From NCBI RefSeq assembly GCF_002001175.1, contig NZ_MUNT01000001.1:1240001-1304000 (forward strand): a stretch of DNA of 64,000 nt, read 5' to 3'. The translations under genes were made by a program, and so were the position numbers. Of the stretch, positions 11,834-19,425 are shown piece after piece (within the stretch, counting starts at the first letter, position 1; each line of letters starts with the position of its first letter). The stretch comes from Rhodanobacter sp. C03 (GTDB lineage Bacteria > Pseudomonadota > Gammaproteobacteria > Xanthomonadales > Rhodanobacteraceae). The notes beneath the pieces are model-generated. The model did not search any database. It worked only from the letters and a program-made list of their open reading frames with translations, and had not been told where the DNA came from.

Positions 11834-11936
11834 TTTAGTCGGTCAGACTGCCATCGCATTCGCCAAATTGTTCCTGACTTCGCGATCGCATGGGCCTGCT
11901 ACGATGATCGGGGGACCATGGGACGCGGGTATCGGC

Positions 11937-13892
11937 GTGGCGGATATCTTTCTTAGCTACAAGCGAGAGGATCGCGCCCGGGCCGGCTTGATCGTCGCTG
12001 CGCTGCGCAAGAGCGGCCGGACGGTATGGTGGGACGAAGGCCTGACTCCGCGCCAGGCATGGGATGCGACGATCGAGCAGGAGATCGCGGCGGCGGCGAG
12101 CGTCATCGTCCTGTGGTCGACGCGCTCGGTCGCGTCCGACTGGGTTCGCAGCGAGGCGCATTACGCACAGGACCGTTCCAAGCTCGTGCCGGTCCTGATC
12201 GAACCGTGCACCGTCCCGCTGGCCTTCATGTTGAAACAGTCCATCGACCTGTCGCGCTGGCGCGAGTCGCCGAACGATCCGGCGTGGTGCAAGCTGATCG
12301 AATGGCTGGACACGCAGGGACCTGCGACCGAGCCGCTGCTGCGCGACCGACGCGCTCGCCTGCCGGGCTGGCTGAGTCGAAGGACGCTGATCGTCGCCGC
12401 ATTCGCCATCGTCGCGTTGCTGGCCGCGTTTTTCGTCTACTGGCCGAAGGTCGATCATGGCGGAGCGCCGAGCATCCGTGTCGCTGCGTTCGATACGCTG
12501 CCCGGTGATCAGGCGTCGGCGTCCTTCTCGCAGGGCTTTGCCGCCGATCTCGCGCAAATCGTCACGTCCGGCGGCTCCACGCTGCGGGTGCTCGACGGGA
12601 CAGCCGCAGGAGCTCCCGCCGCCAACGCCACCGATTTCACGTTGAACGGCAGCGTCCGTAGCGAGGCGGGCAGCCTGCGCGCGACGCTGACGCTGAACTC
12701 GGCGGCGGATGGCGCGATCATCTGGTCGACCAACCTGACGCGGCCGATCGCCGAGGCCGACGCCATGCATCACGAGGCCGAGGTACGCATGGGCGCGGTG
12801 TTCGTTTGCGCGCTCGACGAGACTGCGCGCGACCGCTCGATCGTCAGCGTCGAGGCACTCAAGGTCTATCTGCAGGCTTGCGAAGCGCTGCCGAGCGGCG
12901 ACGACCTGCAAACCCGCAAGCTGCTGCGTGACGTCACCCGACTGGCCCCCGATTTCGCGCAGGGCTGGGGCACGCTGGCCGAAATGAACGGCTTCATCGT
13001 CGGGGAAAGTGATGACGACGAGCCTGCTGCACGCAAGGAAGCGCTGGATGCCGCGGCACGCGCGCTCGCGATCGATCCACGCAACTCGGCCGCCTGGGTG
13101 GGACGCGGCATGATCAAGACGCAGATCAGCGAATGGTCGGCGGCGCAGGCTGACCTCACGCAAGCACTGACGCTCAACCCGGACGATCCGATCGGAAACT
13201 ACTTCTACGCATCCAACCTCATCAGCGTCGGCCGCACTCGCGAAGCGCTCGATTATGCGATGCGCGGAGCCAATTCGGGACCGCAATTCTGGCCCAAGAC
13301 GATGAAGGTCATCGAGACGTTGGCGGACCTCGATCACGTCGACGAGGCGCAGGCGATGCTGGCCACGGCGCTGAAGACCTGGCCCGATAACAATGCATTC
13401 AAGGGTTTTGCGATGATCCTGGCGGTGCGCTACGCCGACCCGGCAAAGGCCGCCGCGACGCTTGACGATCCCGTACTCACGGCGGGCCAAAATCAGGCGC
13501 GCCTGCACTTGGACCGATTGGAGGCGAATGCCAGGGCGCATCCGTCGCCAGCCACGGTCGAGGCGGCGGCTGGTGCGATCAAGGCGCTTTATGTCGGCCC
13601 GGAAGGTGCTTTCAACGCGGCGACCAACTTCATGGCGATCGGTCGCGTCGACGATGCCTATGCCAGTCTCGGCGAGATGCGAACGCCTCTGCGCAACGCG
13701 CCTTACGCCCGAAATCCGTGGCCGTTCTTTGTACCCTACGCTGCGAAGTTCCGCGCCGATCCACGCTTCATGCCGCTGGCCGCGAAGCTGGGCCTCGTCG
13801 CGATCTGGAAGGCGACGAAGTGGCCGGATTTCTGCACGGCGAGAGACGCACCTTACGACTGCCGTGCCGTGGCGGAGAAGCTGGCGCGTTAG
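11937..13892 (+). CDS. TIR-domain protein with transmembrane segment and periplasmic TPR region
   Basis: 651 aa from a GTG start, chosen because the protein then aligns with its paralogue at 17800 (VADIFLSYKRED versus MADVFVSYSRRD); an ATG at 11904 would add 11 residues. The TIR domain covers about 1-125, with Glu73 in DWVRSEAHYA at the position of the catalytic glutamate of TIR NADases. One transmembrane helix follows at about 150-169 (TLIVAAFAIVALLAAFFVYW). A TolB/FlgO-like alpha-beta domain spans about 178-310, then TPR repeats (about 330-600). Topology predicts TIR in the cytosol and TPRs in the periplasm. Role is unknown; signal-gated NAD cleavage is a hypothesis. Confidence 0.85.
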   Translation: MADIFLSYKREDRARAGLIVAALRKSGRTVWWDEGLTPRQAWDATIEQEIAAAASVIVLWSTRSVASDWVRSEAHYAQDRSKLVPVLIEPCTVPLAFMLKQSIDLSRWRESPNDPAWCKLIEWLDTQGPATEPLLRDRRARLPGWLSRRTLIVAAFAIVALLAAFFVYWPKVDHGGAPSIRVAAFDTLPGDQASASFSQGFAADLAQIVTSGGSTLRVLDGTAAGAPAANATDFTLNGSVRSEAGSLRATLTLNSAADGAIIWSTNLTRPIAEADAMHHEAEVRMGAVFVCALDETARDRSIVSVEALKVYLQACEALPSGDDLQTRKLLRDVTRLAPDFAQGWGTLAEMNGFIVGESDDDEPAARKEALDAAARALAIDPRNSAAWVGRGMIKTQISEWSAAQADLTQALTLNPDDPIGNYFYASNLISVGRTREALDYAMRGANSGPQFWPKTMKVIETLADLDHVDEAQAMLATALKTWPDNNAFKGFAMILAVRYADPAKAAATLDDPVLTAGQNQARLHLDRLEANARAHPSPATVEAAAGAIKALYVGPEGAFNAATNFMAIGRVDDAYASLGEMRTPLRNAPYARNPWPFFVPYAAKFRADPRFMPLAAKLGLVAIWKATKWPDFCTARDAPYDCRAVAEKLAR

Positions 13893-13953
13893 CCGGGCAT
13901 GCAAAAACGGTGTCGCCATTTCGCTGTCGAGGTCAGCGGCAGCTCTTTGCTGG

Positions 13954-15279
13954 CTAGTTCTCCGGGACCTCTTTTGTGGGCTGCTCTCGGGCATGCGCTC
14001 TGGCCAGTCCCGGTTGCGTCTCCGGCATGGTCAGCAACACGGGCATCACAGCCAGGGCGACGACGGCGATCATGGCGCCGGGCAGGGCGATCCATCCGGT
14101 CATCCGGACGAACAGCTCGGCGAGAAAAGGTGTCAGGCCGCCGAAGATGGCGGTGGCGACGGTCACGCCCAGGGCCAACCCACTGAGTCGGCCTTCGCCG
14201 GGAAACTGCTCGGCGGTCGCCGGGGCGCCTACCGCACTCACGCCGCCGGCGAGGCAGGCCAGCACGATCGCGCTGGCGGCAATGTGCAGTTCGCCGCCGC
14301 CTGCCATCAGGCCGAACATCGACAGCGGCAGCAGCATGCCGGCGATGCCCAGCCAGATCAGCACCGGTCTGCGTCCGACCCGGTCGGAGAGCGCACCGGC
14401 CAGCGGTGTGACCAGGATCACTGCCACCGCGGCAACGGTCGACAGCCACAGCGAGCGGCCTTCGGCGAGGATGCCCGACGAGCTCAGGAAAGCTGGCACA
14501 TAGGTGATGCCGACGTAATACGTGATCGAGCCAAGCGCCGAGATGGCGAAGGTACGCAACAGTGCTGGCCGGTGATGGATGAGCGTGTAGCGGAGCGGGG
14601 ACGTGGGCACGCTCCGCTGCTTCACTTGTCGCAGGAAATCCGGCGATTCCTCCATGGTGGATCGGGCGAACCAGACGCAGCCGGCCAGCGCCGCGCCCAC
14701 GAAGAACGGAATGCGCCAGCCCCATGCGTCGAGACGGGTGGTGCTCATCGCGCCGACCGTCAGTGCGGCGATCGTCACGGCGAACAGCGCGCCGACCTCG
14801 CTGGCAGCGGAGGCCAGCGAGGTAATCAAGCCACGCCGGTCCTCGCGTGCGCCTTCCAGCAGGTAGGCGACTACGCCCGTATATTCGCCGCCGACAGAGA
14901 ACGCCATGAAACAGCGCAGCAGCAATAGCAGGGCGCCCGCCGCCGGCCCGATCGCGGCATAGTCAGGCAGCAACGCCGTTGCGAGCATCGCCAGCGTCAT
15001 CAGCATCATCGACAGCACCAGCGTGCGCTGCCGCCCGACACGGTCGCCGATATGTCCGAACACCATCGCGCCCAGTGGCCGCATGCCATAGGAAATGGCG
15101 AACCCGGCGAGTGTGGCCAGCAGCGAGTTGGCGCCGCCACCAAAGAACACCCGCGACAGCACCGTGGCGAAATACAGGTAGAGCGTGAAGTCGTACCACT
15201 CCACCACCGTCGACAGCGCTGCGACCACCATGGAGGCACGCGAGATTTCGGGGGTACTGCGCTTTTCGGTCGAGGTCAT
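13954..15279 (-). CDS. MFS transporter, metabolite:H+ symporter type (ProP/ShiA/KgtP-like)
   Basis: 441 aa with 12 predicted membrane helices. Family features are the N-terminal VVEWYDFTLYLYFATVLSRVFF segment, the loop 2-3 motif GHIGDRVGRQR, SVGGEYTGVVAYLLE in helix 5, and a second SDRVGRRPVL loop in the C-half. This subfamily imports osmolytes, dicarboxylates or aromatic acids with protons; the substrate here is not predictable. The start is at TSTEKRSTPE. A longer reading frame would run through the short repeat at 15302-15326. It lies between two genes on the opposite strand. Confidence 0.88.
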   Translation of the reverse strand: MTSTEKRSTPEISRASMVVAALSTVVEWYDFTLYLYFATVLSRVFFGGGANSLLATLAGFAISYGMRPLGAMVFGHIGDRVGRQRTLVLSMMLMTLAMLATALLPDYAAIGPAAGALLLLLRCFMAFSVGGEYTGVVAYLLEGAREDRRGLITSLASAASEVGALFAVTIAALTVGAMSTTRLDAWGWRIPFFVGAALAGCVWFARSTMEESPDFLRQVKQRSVPTSPLRYTLIHHRPALLRTFAISALGSITYYVGITYVPAFLSSSGILAEGRSLWLSTVAAVAVILVTPLAGALSDRVGRRPVLIWLGIAGMLLPLSMFGLMAGGGELHIAASAIVLACLAGGVSAVGAPATAEQFPGEGRLSGLALGVTVATAIFGGLTPFLAELFVRMTGWIALPGAMIAVVALAVMPVLLTMPETQPGLARAHAREQPTKEVPEN

Positions 15280-15301
15280 GCCGTCGGATTGCCGGAAGCG
15301 A

Positions 15302-15326
15302 GAAGGTGTCAGGGACAATACCTGAC
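15302..15326. repeat. Short interspersed repeat, copy A
   Basis: GAAGGTGTCAGGGACAATAC followed by CTGAC: a GTCAGG (15308-15313), 7-nt spacer, CCTGAC (15321-15326) inverted repeat, 22 bp upstream of the MFS start. First of four related copies between 15.3 and 20.1 kb. Confidence 0.65.
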
Positions 15327-15352
15327 GCAGCCGTGCCGATGGCGCTGCAGGA

Positions 15353-15820
15353 TCAGCGCAGCGGTTCGGTCGCCAGATCACCTTTGCATGGAATCGGCCC
15401 GCCATCCTTGCCGACAGCTTGCGTGAAGCTTGAGCCGCTGCGGTTGATCACGATGCCGTCGGCGCACTGCTGGTTCTGGTCCAGCCGGTAACTCGCCTGT
15501 ACGCGAAGGTCTTCCTGGTGCTGCTTGTCCAGGCGCATGGCCTGTTCGGCCTGGTATTGCCGCGCCTGCTCGTTCACCTGCTGGTACGTGTTGGACAAGT
15601 CCTCACGCTGCTGCTTCAGATTGGCCGCCAGCTGTGCATGGTATTGCTCGGCGTGCGCCTTGGCCTGTTGTGCATCCAGCGCGGCGGCGCGAGCGGAATC
15701 GCGCATGAGCTCATCGGCGTGGCGCGCCGCAAGGTATTGGGAAAGCCCATTCCAGGCAAACACGGCGACGATCAAACCCGCCACGCCGGCTCCGATTTTC
15801 CACGACAACGGCATGGCCAT
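15353..15820 (-). CDS. Membrane-anchored coiled-coil protein of unknown function
   Basis: 155 aa. One N-terminal transmembrane helix (about residues 7-25, WKIGAGVAGLIVAVFAWNGL) is followed by a long Gln/Ala-rich coiled coil (about 30-115) and a short C-terminal tail with two cysteines (CADGIVINRSG, IPCKGD). This resembles membrane-anchored periplasmic coiled-coil proteins, but no family is recognised. A start 13 codons upstream (15859) is possible. It lies head to tail with the MFS gene, whose start is 73 bp downstream of its stop, with repeat copy A between them. Confidence 0.6.
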   Translation of the reverse strand: MAMPLSWKIGAGVAGLIVAVFAWNGLSQYLAARHADELMRDSARAAALDAQQAKAHAEQYHAQLAANLKQQREDLSNTYQQVNEQARQYQAEQAMRLDKQHQEDLRVQASYRLDQNQQCADGIVINRSGSSFTQAVGKDGGPIPCKGDLATEPLR

Positions 15821-16125
15821 GACACCCAACCCCTGCAAGACTTGTGGAGAATTCCGCACCCTCCGTACCCCGACGAAACCTCGGCGGGAGCCGGCTGACA
15901 GAGTCTAGCAGGGCGTTGAAAAGCACTCGGCCAAGGTGAGCCACGATGGCTGACCGTGATGGAAAAGGTGTCGGGGACAAATCCCGGTGCTGCCGGCCGG
16001 CCACCGGGTCGTTCAAATTGTCGCTGACACGATTATTGCCAAGCTGGTCAAGGTGGATGTGTCTGGGTTGTGAGGCGTGGACCGCAAGCGTAGTAAGGTC
16101 GGCGCTTTCCCGGAGGAGGTTCCCC
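15821..16125. other. Intergenic region with repeat copy B
   Basis: This 305-bp divergent region separates the coiled-coil gene from the M28 peptidase gene. Repeat copy B occupies 15963-15988. I see no further gene: an in-frame extension of the peptidase upstream from 16126 has no secretion signal and crosses the repeat. Confidence 0.6.
15963..15988. repeat. Short interspersed repeat, copy B
   Basis: AAAAGGTGTCGGGGACAAAT followed by CCCGGT: GTCGGG (15970-15975), 7-nt spacer, CCCGGT. The arms differ from copy A but change together (CGGG with CCCG), so the pairing is kept. Confidence 0.65.
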
Positions 16126-17520
16126 ATGATCGGTTGCCAGCGGCTGCTCACGCTCGTATTGCTCGGTGTTGTCTTTGCCTGCCAGGCCCAGACAACGGCC
16201 GAACCGCGCGAACAGCTGCAACTGCATGCGCTGGCGGCGGCGCCGAGCGAGGCCGAGCTGCATGCGACGATCGGCCGCCTGGTGGGTTTCGGCACACGCC
16301 ACACCTTGTCCGATACCCGGTCAGACAAGCGTGGCATTGGCGCCGCGCGGCGCTGGGTGAAAGCCCGCTTCGAGCAGATTTCACATGATTGCGGCGGCTG
16401 CATCGAGGTGGTTACGCCGGCACAAACGTTCACCGGCAAGCGCGTACCGCAGCCCACCGACGTGATGGACGTGGTCGCGATCAAGCGCGGCAGCACCGAT
16501 CCGCAACGGGTGATCGTGATGACCGGCCATCTGGATTCGCGCGTCACCGATGTCATGAATGCCACCAGCGATGCGCCCGGAGCGAATGACGACGCTTCCG
16601 GTGTGGCTGCGCTGATCGAGGCGGCACGCCTGCTGTCGAAGCAGGACAACCAGGCCACCCTGGTGTTCGCCGCGGTATCCGGCGAAGAACAGGGGCTGTA
16701 CGGCGGCAAGGTGCTGGCCGACTACGCGGTCGCGAAGGGTTGGGCCGTCGAGGCCGATCTCAACAACGACATCGTCGGTAACAGCCGGGGTCAGAACGGC
16801 GTGCGGGACAATACTGTCGTACGCGTGTTCTCCGAAGGCACCAAGAGCAACGAAACGCCCGCGCAGGCCAACTACCGTCGCTACCATGGTGGCGAGGTGG
16901 ATTCGCCCTCGCGCAATCTCGCACGCCTGATGTCGCAGCTGGCGGGGCAGTACCTGCCGGATTTCCATGTGCACATGGTCTATCGCACCGATCGCTACAG
17001 CCGGGGCGGGGATCAGGTGCCGTTCCTCGAAGCGGGCTTCCCGGCAGTACGCGTAAGCGAAGGCCACGAGGATTACACGCGCCAGCATCAGGATCTGCGT
17101 GTCGGCAATACCGACCACGATCGCGGCGTTCATTACGGCGACACGATCGACGGCATTGACTTCCGCTATTTGGCGCATGTCACGGCACTCAACACGATCA
17201 CGATGGCGGCTTTGAGCCGGGCGCCCGCACCGCCCACGGGTGTCGACATCGCCGGCTCTCTGGCTACCGACACCACGGTGACATGGCACAAGGTGCCTGC
17301 GGCGGCCGGCTACCGCGTGCACTGGCGCGATACCACTGCGCCGCAATGGCAGTTCGCGCGAGCTGTCGGCGACGTCGACCATGCTGTCATCAAGGACGTG
17401 GTGATCGACGACTGGTATTTCGGCGTGTCGTCCGTCTCTGCCGACGGCTACGAAAGCCCGGTGGTGTTTCCCGGCTATGCGGGCAGTTTCGAGCGCTCGC
17501 CGGCTGCAGTGACGCACTGA
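16126..17520 (+). CDS. Secreted M28-family zinc aminopeptidase with C-terminal Ig/FN3-like domain
   Basis: 464 aa, start fixed by a GGAGGAGGT ribosome binding site 5 bp upstream. Residues 1-22 are a signal peptide. The M28 catalytic domain shows candidate ligands of the dinuclear zinc site: His135 in TGHLDSR, Asp155 in GANDDASG, Glu187/188 in SGEEQG, Asp215 in LNNDIVGN and His314 in SEGHEDY. Residues about 385-455 form a fibronectin-III-like domain (GVDIAGSLATDTTVTWHKVP). It probably trims peptides in the periplasm or outside the cell. Repeat copies B and C flank it. Monocistronic. Confidence 0.9.
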   Translation: MIGCQRLLTLVLLGVVFACQAQTTAEPREQLQLHALAAAPSEAELHATIGRLVGFGTRHTLSDTRSDKRGIGAARRWVKARFEQISHDCGGCIEVVTPAQTFTGKRVPQPTDVMDVVAIKRGSTDPQRVIVMTGHLDSRVTDVMNATSDAPGANDDASGVAALIEAARLLSKQDNQATLVFAAVSGEEQGLYGGKVLADYAVAKGWAVEADLNNDIVGNSRGQNGVRDNTVVRVFSEGTKSNETPAQANYRRYHGGEVDSPSRNLARLMSQLAGQYLPDFHVHMVYRTDRYSRGGDQVPFLEAGFPAVRVSEGHEDYTRQHQDLRVGNTDHDRGVHYGDTIDGIDFRYLAHVTALNTITMAALSRAPAPPTGVDIAGSLATDTTVTWHKVPAAAGYRVHWRDTTAPQWQFARAVGDVDHAVIKDVVIDDWYFGVSSVSADGYESPVVFPGYAGSFERSPAAVTH

Positions 17521-17524
17521 AAAC

Positions 17525-17551
17525 AAAAGGTGTCAGGGGCAATTCCTGGTT
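17525..17551. repeat. Short interspersed repeat, copy C
   Basis: CAAAAGGTGTCAGGGGCAAT followed by TCCTGG, starting 5 bp after the M28 stop. GTCAGG (17533-17538), 7-nt spacer, CCTGG. A further inverted match (TGTCCCCTGG at 17565-17574) could extend it into a hairpin terminator for the peptidase gene. Confidence 0.65.
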
Positions 17552-17799
17552 GTTCCTTCGGAATGTCCCCTGGACTGCCTGCTGAAACCCGCTCGCAATC
17601 GCCAGAACGCGCTTCGAATCGCCGATGGAAGCGGTGAAGACGCATGGCCTAGGGCAGATCGGCCACGCGTTGTATGGCGTGGGTGGGAAATGCCGGCGCA
17701 ATATGTAACGCCGCTCCTGCCGCTGTCATGCGCATGGCGGCGGGGTGATTGCGGGCCGAACGGATTGCGGCGACCGGCACGATCGAAGGTGGCACAGGC

Positions 17800-19425
17800 A
17801 TGGCCGATGTCTTCGTTTCCTACTCCCGCCGCGACAAGGCTCGCGTCGCACCGCTCGTGGCGGCGATCGAGGCGCGGGGGTGGTCGGTCTGGTGGGATCC
17901 GGAAATCCTTCCCGGCCAGGAGTTCGACCGCCAGATCGATGCCGAACTGAAGATCGCTGCCGCTGTCCTGGTCGTCTGGACCGCGCATTCGGTAGATTCG
18001 CGCTGGGTTCGCGGCGAGGCGCGTGACGCCGCCGATCGCGACATCCTCGTTCCCGTGCGATTCGATAACGCGATTCTGCCGATCGATGTGCGCGCATTCC
18101 ATACCATCGAACTCGACGATGCGGCGGTGTCCGCTGGCGGCCCGCAACTCAATGAACTGCTGCAGGCACTCGAAGGCCAGATCGCCCGGCATGCCGGGCG
18201 CCCACCTGAGTCGGTGAAGTCCGTTCCGCTACCGTCTGTTCCAGGCGTCGCATCCACACGCGTGGCCATCTGCGTGCTGCCGTTCGGGAACCTGAGCGCC
18301 GATCCCGGGCAGCAATACCTGAGTGACGGCATCACCGAGGACATCATTACCGAGCTGTCGCGTTGGCGTTTCCTTGCGGTGCGTTCGCGCTCGGCGTCGT
18401 TTCGCTACCGCGGCGACGCTGTCGATGTGAAACTCGTGGCCCGCGAATTGAATGTGCGTTTCATCGTCGAGGGCGGCATCCGGCGCATGGGCGAACGCAT
18501 CCGCATCACCGCACAATTGATCGACACCGAAACTGGCGACCACATCTGGGCCGAGAAATTCGACCGTGAGTCGGCCGACATCTTCAACGTGCAGGATGAG
18601 GTCGTGCGAACGATCGTCAGCACGCTCGTCGGTCGCGTGCAGGTGTCGCATGCCGAACGGGCGCGCAAGAATCCGGCGAATCTCGCGGCCTACGAATACG
18701 TGCTGAAGGGCAATGCATTGTCCTGGGACGATCCGGGTGGTGCGGAGGAAGCGAAGAAGCTGTTCGAGAAAGCTATCGAGCTCGATTCCGGCTATGGCAT
18801 GGCCCACGCGTTACTGGCCTCCATCCGCTCCGGGCAGTGGCGCGACGGTCCAGACGACTCGGACGCGCTTCTCGCGGAAGCGTATGTGCTGGCACGGCGG
18901 GCGGTCGAACTGGACGAAAACGACAGCACCTGCTTTTCCATCATGGCGCAGGTCTGCCTGCTGCGGCGCTCGTTCGACATGGCACTGCAACACATGCAGC
19001 GGGCAATCGAGATCAATCCGAACAACCAATGGAACAACGCCGATATGGGCATCATCCTGATCTATCTCGGTCAGCCCGAAGAAGCATTGGCGTGGTTCAA
19101 GCGGGCCAAGGAGATTGATCCGTACTTCGATCAGCCATGGTATTGGCGCTCGATCGGCCAGGCACTCATGAGCCTGCATCGGGACGAGGAAGCACTGGCG
19201 ATGTTCGAACACCTGTCCGCCAGCCACTACCGGTCCGCCGCGTTTTCTGCCTGCTGCCATGCCCGGCTCGGGAACATGGACCAGGCCCGCACCAGCGCGT
19301 CCACCTGCGTGGCGATGAAACCCGATTTCTCCATGCGACATTTCATGAGCAAGGAGCCGTACAAAAAAACGGCCGATGCCGAGCACCTGGCCGAAAGCCT
19401 GCTGCTGGCCGGCTTGCCGACTTGA
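17800..19425 (+). CDS. Soluble TIR/TolB-like/TPR protein
   Basis: 541 aa, start at the ATG after GAAGGTGG. The TIR domain (about 1-125) carries Glu73 in RWVRGEARDAADRD, the position of the catalytic Glu in TIR NADases. A TolB/FlgO-like domain (about 148-290) is recognisable by VAICVLPFGNLSADPGQQYLSDG, FIVEGGIRRMGERIRITAQL and GDHIWAEKFDRE. This domain usually links adenylate cyclase or winged-helix outputs to TPRs. TPR repeats follow (about 305-500). No transmembrane helix or signal peptide is visible. A DUF924 gene follows 20 bp later, so the two are probably cotranscribed. Confidence 0.9.
   Translation: MADVFVSYSRRDKARVAPLVAAIEARGWSVWWDPEILPGQEFDRQIDAELKIAAAVLVVWTAHSVDSRWVRGEARDAADRDILVPVRFDNAILPIDVRAFHTIELDDAAVSAGGPQLNELLQALEGQIARHAGRPPESVKSVPLPSVPGVASTRVAICVLPFGNLSADPGQQYLSDGITEDIITELSRWRFLAVRSRSASFRYRGDAVDVKLVARELNVRFIVEGGIRRMGERIRITAQLIDTETGDHIWAEKFDRESADIFNVQDEVVRTIVSTLVGRVQVSHAERARKNPANLAAYEYVLKGNALSWDDPGGAEEAKKLFEKAIELDSGYGMAHALLASIRSGQWRDGPDDSDALLAEAYVLARRAVELDENDSTCFSIMAQVCLLRRSFDMALQHMQRAIEINPNNQWNNADMGIILIYLGQPEEALAWFKRAKEIDPYFDQPWYWRSIGQALMSLHRDEEALAMFEHLSASHYRSAAFSACCHARLGNMDQARTSASTCVAMKPDFSMRHFMSKEPYKKTADAEHLAESLLLAGLPT

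What the first reader, a model, noticed from the sequence alone, without database searches (positions are those of the whole stretch)
11937..19425. Two TIR-TPR proteins with different topologies close together
The genes at 11937 and 17800 share an aligned TIR domain with a glutamate in the same place (residue 73) and both end in TPRs, but one has a transmembrane helix and the other a TolB/FlgO-like domain and no membrane segment. TolB-like/TPR modules normally sit behind an adenylate cyclase or winged helix. Here a TIR replaces that output, which would fit a signalling enzyme making an NAD-derived messenger. A role in immunity is possible, but no classic defence gene is beside them.
Basis: partly seen in the sequence, partly recalled or inferred. 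Interest (0 to 1): 0.65.

Follow-up and report, generated by a model that had tools for sequence, protein, structure and literature searches.

The report
TIR proteins with swappable TolB-TPR sensors
Two neighbouring Rhodanobacter genes carry a TIR domain of the NAD-cutting type on the kind of sensor that elsewhere drives gene switches, and relatives of one of them stand in arrays beside a predicted nucleotide-sensing membrane protein, which suggests a possible cell alarm system that works like Thoeris.

Summary
Both genes are real. P0001 (11937-13892, GTG start) and P0002 (17800-19425) each have an N-terminal TIR with W69 and E73 and end in TPRs. One detail is wrong: P0001 also has a degenerate TolB-like domain behind its membrane helix. 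P0001 looks like a single moved gene, so the pairing is probably accidental. P0002 is followed 17 bp on by a DUF924 gene, as in 5 of 7 relatives. Output swapping is visible: one genome puts a winged helix on P0002's own sensor (60% identical, same clade). Main new result: P0002-like genes elsewhere form tandem arrays of up to seven and, in 13 of 73 loci, lie next to a protein with a YpsA-like SLOG domain and two SLATT-type membrane parts. That protein is in 8 of 8 order-level genomes with TIR-TolB-TPR (100 of 398 overall) and 11 of 11 family-level ones (50 of 147); four genomes are in both sets. The window's genome has it on another contig. Best reading: interchangeable TIR sensors make an NAD-derived signal that opens a SLOG-SLATT membrane effector, as in Thoeris. 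NAD cleavage and defence are untested. A new variant of a known kind.

The parts
11937..13892 (+). P0001: TIR(4-110)-TM(about 150-170)-degenerate TolB-like-TPR protein, 651 aa, GTG start
11879..11936 (+). block just upstream of P0001 kept in both other copies (own-genome paralogue and Rhodanobacter sp. B05); probably its own promoter region (inference)
   Evidence: blastn left border 11879 in both comparisons; alignment
12384..12446 (+). membrane helix of P0001 (residues about 150-170); arginine-rich on the TIR side, so the TIR is inside and TolB-TPR outside (inference from the positive-inside rule)
17800..19425 (+). P0002: TIR(4-107)-TolB-like(about 155-290)-TPR(about 291-541) protein, 541 aa, no membrane segment
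19443..20021 (+). DUF924 gene, 17 bp after the stop of P0002 (start read from the sequence printed); the same pair is found in 5 of 7 P0002-clade loci
13954..15405 (-). MFS transporter; neighbour only, not found beside P0002 relatives
15946..17520 (+). M28-family peptidase; neighbour only, not found beside P0002 relatives

Best explanation
P0001 and P0002 are one-protein sensors with a TIR output. The C-terminal TolB-TPR module, the kind that works in CadC/ToxR-type regulators, detects a cue: outside the inner membrane in P0001 (CadC-like topology), in the cytoplasm in P0002. The cue makes the TIRs assemble and cut NAD+, using the W69xxxE73 site, into a small, probably cyclic, ADP-ribose messenger. 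A SLOG-SLATT protein encoded on another contig (C18:137905-139614) binds the messenger with its YpsA-like SLOG domain and opens or disrupts the membrane. Several TIR sensors, including the TIR-TM-TPR pair beside the SLOG-SLATT gene, would feed one effector, as several ThsB can feed one ThsA. Shown by tools: architecture, conserved active-site positions, output swap, arrays, linkage and co-occurrence of SLOG-SLATT in relatives, SLOG fold match. Inferred: cue, NAD cleavage, messenger, membrane effect, protective role, and that P0001 and P0002 use the unlinked effector.
For: AbTIR residues S140, D167, V193, W204 and E208 align with S7, D33, V58, W69 and E73, and R215 with R80 by ungapped extension. 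Among 114 distinct TIR ORFs of at least 300 residues picked by an N-terminal motif, W69xxxE73 is present in 113, D33 in 114 and R80 in 106. The TIR profile finds SARM1/tir-1, PdTIR and AbTIR structures. A TolB-TPR module 60% identical to P0002's carries a winged helix in G365 and falls inside P0002's clade (support 100/99). P0002's TIR is 69-76% identical to four array-clade TIRs whose TPR parts are only 19-23% identical, while against two of its own clade 70 and 81% TIR goes with 59 and 67% TPR. SLOG-SLATT lies beside the TIR genes in 13 of 73 loci; in L130, L131, L133, L141, L154 and L175 it follows on the same strand after 8-191 bp. Co-occurrence: 11 of 11 against 50 of 147 in the family, 8 of 8 against 100 of 398 in the order, 36 of 48 against 5 of 303 in the class. 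The effector's N-terminus matches YpsA (Z 16.6, rmsd 2.8, 161 of 178 residues); DUF4231/SLATT models match its C-terminal part, which has two pairs of hydrophobic segments.
Against: P0002's own clade has no SLOG-SLATT within the stretches held (up to 10 kb a side, several contigs short) in any of 9 loci, and 2 of those 9 genomes lack it. Some clade genomes also hold array-clade genes (the window's own, L019; L117 and L135 share one genome), so their SLOG-SLATT may serve those. In all, 12 of 48 genomes with the gene have no match, and 6 of the 36 matches are weak. Relatedness is not removed from the p-values; by genus it is 5 of 5 against 40 of 98 in the order (p 0.0097) and 4 of 4 against 15 of 26 in the family (p 0.09). 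SLOG-SLATT is commoner than TIR-TolB-TPR, and its usual neighbour is another TIR protein (12 of 17 loci). AbTIR R151 aligns with A17, so that position is not kept. SLATT matches are below the NCBIfam cut-offs. No product, binding or defence result exists.
Confidence: 0.5

Rival explanations
1. P0002 acts with DUF924, not with SLOG-SLATT: a two-gene stress or signalling module in which the TIR modifies a nucleotide pool and DUF924 is its partner or regulator, without a membrane effector.
For: DUF924 lies directly downstream in 5 of 7 P0002-clade loci from Lysobacteraceae, Steroidobacteraceae and unplaced Gammaproteobacteria, 17 bp away in the window. Two of those genomes (G445, G447) carry a second, separate DUF924, and the window genome's other copy is broken, which fits transfer as a pair.
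Against: DUF924 is a common gene here (14 of 16 genomes), so the pair may reflect one ancestral insertion. L111 and L114 lack it within 10 kb, though both genomes have one elsewhere. 7 of 9 clade genomes also hold SLOG-SLATT.
Confidence: 0.2
2. The TIR is a scaffold that passes the signal by TIR-TIR contacts, without catalysis.
For: TIRs can act as assembly domains (general knowledge); AbTIR R151 is not conserved.
Against: D33 in 114 of 114 and W69/E73 in 113 of 114 ORFs; catalytic positions are usually lost in scaffold TIRs (general knowledge, not tested).
Confidence: 0.12
3. TIR and SLOG-SLATT only share a lineage and a habit of being acquired; there is no functional link.
For: Both are patchy. 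Several Rhodanobacteraceae arrays appear to lie in one chromosomal region (seen by eye), so linkage there could be one event.
Against: Two SLOG-SLATT subfamilies (27-30% and 45% or more identical to the query) flank arrays in different lineages. In Pseudoxanthomonas daejeonensis a TIR-TolB-TPR gene stands directly before SLOG-SLATT where other loci have TIR-TM-TPR. Genomes with the genes unlinked also keep both.
Confidence: 0.12

Closest known systems
Thoeris (ThsB TIR + ThsA)
   Same: One or more TIR sensors plus one effector with a nucleotide-binding domain; type I uses a SLOG domain, type II a membrane part with a macro domain (PMC11204291 and PMC12948488, passages).
   Different: Here the candidate effector joins SLOG to two SLATT-type membrane parts, and no SIR2 or macro domain was matched in it; the TIR proteins carry TolB-TPR sensors and can stand in arrays of up to seven; no defence assay exists.
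CadC/ToxR-type one-component regulators (winged helix-TM-sensor)
   Same: The TolB-TPR part of P0002 matches the CadC periplasmic domain by fold (3ly8, Foldseek E 1.4e-7; part of this may be general helical repeat likeness), and an array relative matches the CadC model by sequence over residues 169-404 (34.9 bits against a cut-off of 400).
   Different: A TIR in place of the DNA-binding domain, and P0002 has no membrane helix. P0002 itself did not reach the CadC model at E 0.01.
SLOG/SLATT conflict systems predicted by Burroughs, Aravind and colleagues
   Same: SLATT is predicted to be an ADPr-derivative-regulated membrane effector, found with TIR genes (PMC9503650, passages; the 2015 founding paper is recalled, not read).
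   Different: No TIR-TolB-TPR array or TolB-TPR sensor was mentioned in the passages read.
AbTIR, PdTIR and SARM1 TIR domains
   Same: Sequence profile match and the WxxxE site.
   Different: Different sensor part; product unknown.

Membership tests
NAD-processing TIR enzymes | TIR domain over the curated cut-off | tested here: met
   PF13676 79.7 and 74.4 bits against a cut-off of 28
NAD-processing TIR enzymes | Catalytic glutamate in the WxxxE motif | tested here: met
   W69xxxE73 in both; 113 of 114 TIR ORFs of the set
NAD-processing TIR enzymes | Other AbTIR positions whose mutation inhibits (S140, R151, D167, V193, R215, Y238) | tested here: inconclusive
   S7, D33, V58 and, by ungapped extension, R80 kept; R151 aligns with A17; Y238 not alignable
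NAD-processing TIR enzymes | NAD+ cleavage | not testable with these tools
   needs an enzyme assay
Thoeris | TIR protein matching a ThsB/ThcB model above cut-off | tested here: not met
   best ThcB4 35.8 bits (P0002) against 220; PADLOC ThsB E 1.7e-4 and 3.2e-4 for P0002; Pfam ThsB_TIR 19.6 bits for P0001 against 21.2
Thoeris | ThsA effector (SIR2-SLOG or TM-macro) beside it | tested here: not met
   none among the ten window proteins scanned with Pfam and seven with PADLOC; the rest of the genome was not searched for SIR2 or macro; the candidate effector is SLOG-SLATT on another contig
Thoeris | Phage defence through a TIR-made messenger | not testable with these tools
   needs phage and metabolite assays
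CadC/ToxR-type regulators | N-terminal winged helix | tested here: not met
   TIR in its place in both proteins
CadC/ToxR-type regulators | TolB-like plus TPR-like sensor module | tested here: met
   60% identical module with a winged helix in G365; CadC fold match
SLOG superfamily (partner protein) | SLOG Rossmann-like fold | tested here: met
   YpsA Z 16.6, rmsd 2.8, 161 of 178 residues aligned; DprA, LOG and EcThsA lower; model pLDDT 78-96 per ten-residue block over residues 21-160
SLATT (partner protein) | SLATT/DUF4231 model above cut-off | tested here: inconclusive
   DUF4231 31.4 and 25.4 bits against 24.7 met; Pfam SLATT_1 26.1 and 17.0 against 26.3, SLATT_3 and the NCBIfam SLATT models not met

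The most novel reading that the evidence does not exclude
A plug-in immune receptor repertoire: diverging tandem arrays of up to seven TIR receptors with swappable TolB-TPR sensors, some cytoplasmic and some looking outside the cell like CadC, all feed one SLOG-SLATT membrane killer through a shared NAD-derived messenger. Array TIR ends are kept alike while the sensor ends diverge (in 9 of 9 arrays measured TIR identity 85-91%, TPR 46-68%). This would be a bacterial parallel of expanded receptor families with a common output.
Probability: 0.25. Interest if true: 0.85.

Novelty: new variant of a known kind. Interest (0 to 1): 0.6.

Why it matters
If right, the TolB-TPR module is a general sensor that bacteria join to DNA-binding or to NAD-signalling outputs, and TIR signalling gains a candidate further kind of effector beside SIR2-SLOG and TM-macro. 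The natural winged-helix/TIR swap gives a way to find the cue: read it out as transcription first, then as NAD signalling. P0001's topology suggests a TIR pathway that may listen to the outside of the cell.

Tried and rejected
Pairing of P0001 and P0002 as one locus: dropped, because P0001 behaves as a single moved gene (90% DNA identity over 11879-13884 with a copy elsewhere in the genome, and a different position in Rhodanobacter sp. B05) and the distance is not very unlikely by chance (0.045). M28 and MFS as partners: no match in any of 73 loci at E 1e-10. Foreign base composition: GC of P0001 0.659 and of P0002 0.624 against 0.632 for the window, so no sign. PADLOC on seven window proteins and on seven proteins from related loci: only TIR-, TPR- or coil-level matches. 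Positive selection on array sensors: not claimed; TPR dN is higher, but dS is higher too and alignment error there is likely. Domain recombination between the two TIR clades: suggested by the identities, but a steep rate gradient is not excluded. An early note of mine spoke of arrays of eight; the recount gives seven.

Literature: ten searches. No listing showed a title or abstract on TIR-TolB-TPR arrays with SLOG-SLATT. The library lacks most subscription papers, and the 20 papers listed were mostly about cannabinoids. The Foldseek search with the SLOG-SLATT model gave no match at E 0.001 or better (best 6.7e-3, DprA); the SLOG assignment rests. Its membrane part gave only middling matches to ABC transporters, which I do not read as relatives. 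NCBIfam at E 10 gave only SLATT models for three SLOG-SLATT proteins, no Thoeris model.
Full report
What is there. The window lies in a 3.86 Mb genome of the same genus as an assembly that is Rhodanobacter sp. B05 (G093; its 645,680-base contig equals NZ_MUNU01000019.1 in length). P0001 and P0002 are intact at the stated coordinates. Pfam finds TIR_2 and TPRs in both. P0001 has one membrane helix, P0002 none. The AlphaFold model of P0002 (mean pLDDT 79.5, pTM 0.52) has a TIR that matches solved TIR domains (4w8g, Z 16.3, rmsd 2.7, 123 residues), a mixed alpha/beta domain, and a TPR superhelix.

The TIR site. The TIR profile finds AbTIR, PdTIR and SARM1/tir-1. Read against the AbTIR mutants in PMC11374754 (passages), S7, D33, V58, W69 and E73 match inhibiting positions and R80 does by ungapped extension; R151 is not kept (A17) and Y238 could not be aligned. 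That paper says the tryptophan is strongly conserved in TIRs that make cyclic ADP-ribose, citing Manik et al. (not read here). WxxxE is in 113 of 114 TIR ORFs of the set; the exception is a distant TIR at L120:17047.

Swappable parts. In this genome the TolB-TPR module also stands behind an N-terminal region with two hydrophobic segments (2 genes) and behind a winged helix followed by one or two hydrophobic segments (2 genes; Trans_reg_C 63.8 and 65.5 bits). In genome G365 a module 60% identical to P0002's residues 148-540 carries a winged helix (Trans_reg_C 69.4 bits) and, like P0002, has no membrane segment. A tree of 42 TolB-TPR modules puts it inside P0002's clade (support 100/99). P0002's TIR is 69-76% identical to four array-clade TIRs while the TPR parts are 19-23% identical; against two members of its own clade the figures are 70 and 81% and 59 and 67%. 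The fold search lists the CadC periplasmic domain among the better matches.

Neighbours. P0002's clade (62-70% identity; 9 loci, two of them cut off by contig ends) consists of single TIR genes. DUF924 follows directly in L112, L113, L115, L116 and L117 but not in L111 or L114. The nearest solved DUF924 relative is 2i6h. DUF924 is common in these genomes (14 of 16), and the window's genome has a second, broken copy.

The partner. The other clade forms tandem arrays of up to seven genes (L125, L141). In 13 of 73 named loci, many of them short contigs, a protein of about 590 residues lies beside them. Its model (pLDDT 78.2, pTM 0.78) starts with a SLOG fold closest to YpsA (Z 16.6), followed by two helical parts, each with a pair of hydrophobic segments (the more distant L130 shows three segments), that match DUF4231/SLATT models weakly to just above cut-off. 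The YpsA-like SLOG clade includes cADPR sensors, and SLATT is predicted to be an ADPr-derivative-regulated membrane effector (PMC9503650, passages). Its usual neighbours are a ThsB-like TIR-TM-TPR gene (12 of 17 loci) and a small protein (10 of 17). The window's genome has this cassette on contig C18, with two TIR-TM-TPR genes.

Co-occurrence. Family: 11 of 11 genomes with TIR-TolB-TPR have SLOG-SLATT, 50 of 147 overall (p 3.2e-6). Order: 8 of 8, or 9 of 9 with the winged-helix one, against 100 of 398 (p 1.3e-5 and 3.0e-6). Four of these genomes are in both sets. By genus 5 of 5 against 40 of 98, p 0.0097; in the family by genus 4 of 4 against 15 of 26, p 0.09. Beyond that: 36 of 48 genomes of the named loci at E 1e-6 (30 of 48 at 1e-25, counted from the table) against 5 of 303 in a class sample; three of those five (G000, G147, and G529, which shows the same place as G458) themselves hold TIR-TolB-TPR. 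Seven of nine P0002-clade genomes have it; some also hold array-clade genes. These tests do not correct for relatedness, and the 48 genomes come largely from lineages where SLOG-SLATT is frequent, so the class comparison overstates the effect.

P0001. Its nearest copies are an 87% identical paralogue beside a homoserine dehydrogenase gene and an orthologue in Rhodanobacter sp. B05 at another place in the same region. Full-length relatives were found in 2 of 147 family genomes; 12 more had only partial or far weaker matches. Similarity starts at 11879 in both comparisons, as if the gene moved with its own upstream region. How it moved is unknown.

Judgement. A TIR output on a CadC-type sensor is well supported. 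An NAD-derived messenger to SLOG-SLATT is the best-supported mechanism for the array clade and plausible, but unlinked, for P0001 and P0002. It works like Thoeris; it is not a Thoeris member by the models and neighbours tested. Immunity is a reasonable guess from patchiness, arrays and the membrane partner, and is unproven.

Noticed in passing
L021:1903-9244 (G000:C18, 137902-145243): Cassette of two TIR-TM-TPR genes, two small proteins without a Pfam match over cut-off and a SLOG-SLATT gene in the window's own genome; such a small protein recurs in 10 of 17 SLOG-SLATT loci and its role is unknown.
   Followed up: partly
L018:5518-7527: Second copy of P0001, 90% identical in DNA including 58 bp upstream, beside a homoserine dehydrogenase gene: a recent single-gene duplication; I saw no mobile element but did not search for one.
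   Followed up: partly
G000:C11:410158-410510: Broken second DUF924 gene (two fragments, one internal stop), while the intact copy is the one beside P0002.
   Followed up: no
L206:6049-7809: Winged helix fused to a TolB-TPR module 60% identical to P0002's, without a membrane segment: a natural output swap.
   Followed up: yes
L125, L141, L123, L158, L135, L122, L132, L134, L155: In 9 of 9 arrays the TIR end is more alike than the TPR end in amino acids, and TIR dS is lower than TPR dS, as gene conversion of the TIR end would give; alignment error and saturation are not excluded.
   Followed up: partly
L113:14969-17590: Another ORF with a TIR-like N-terminus of a different kind (873 aa, seen by eye) about 3 kb from the P0002 relative in this metagenome assembly.
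   Followed up: no
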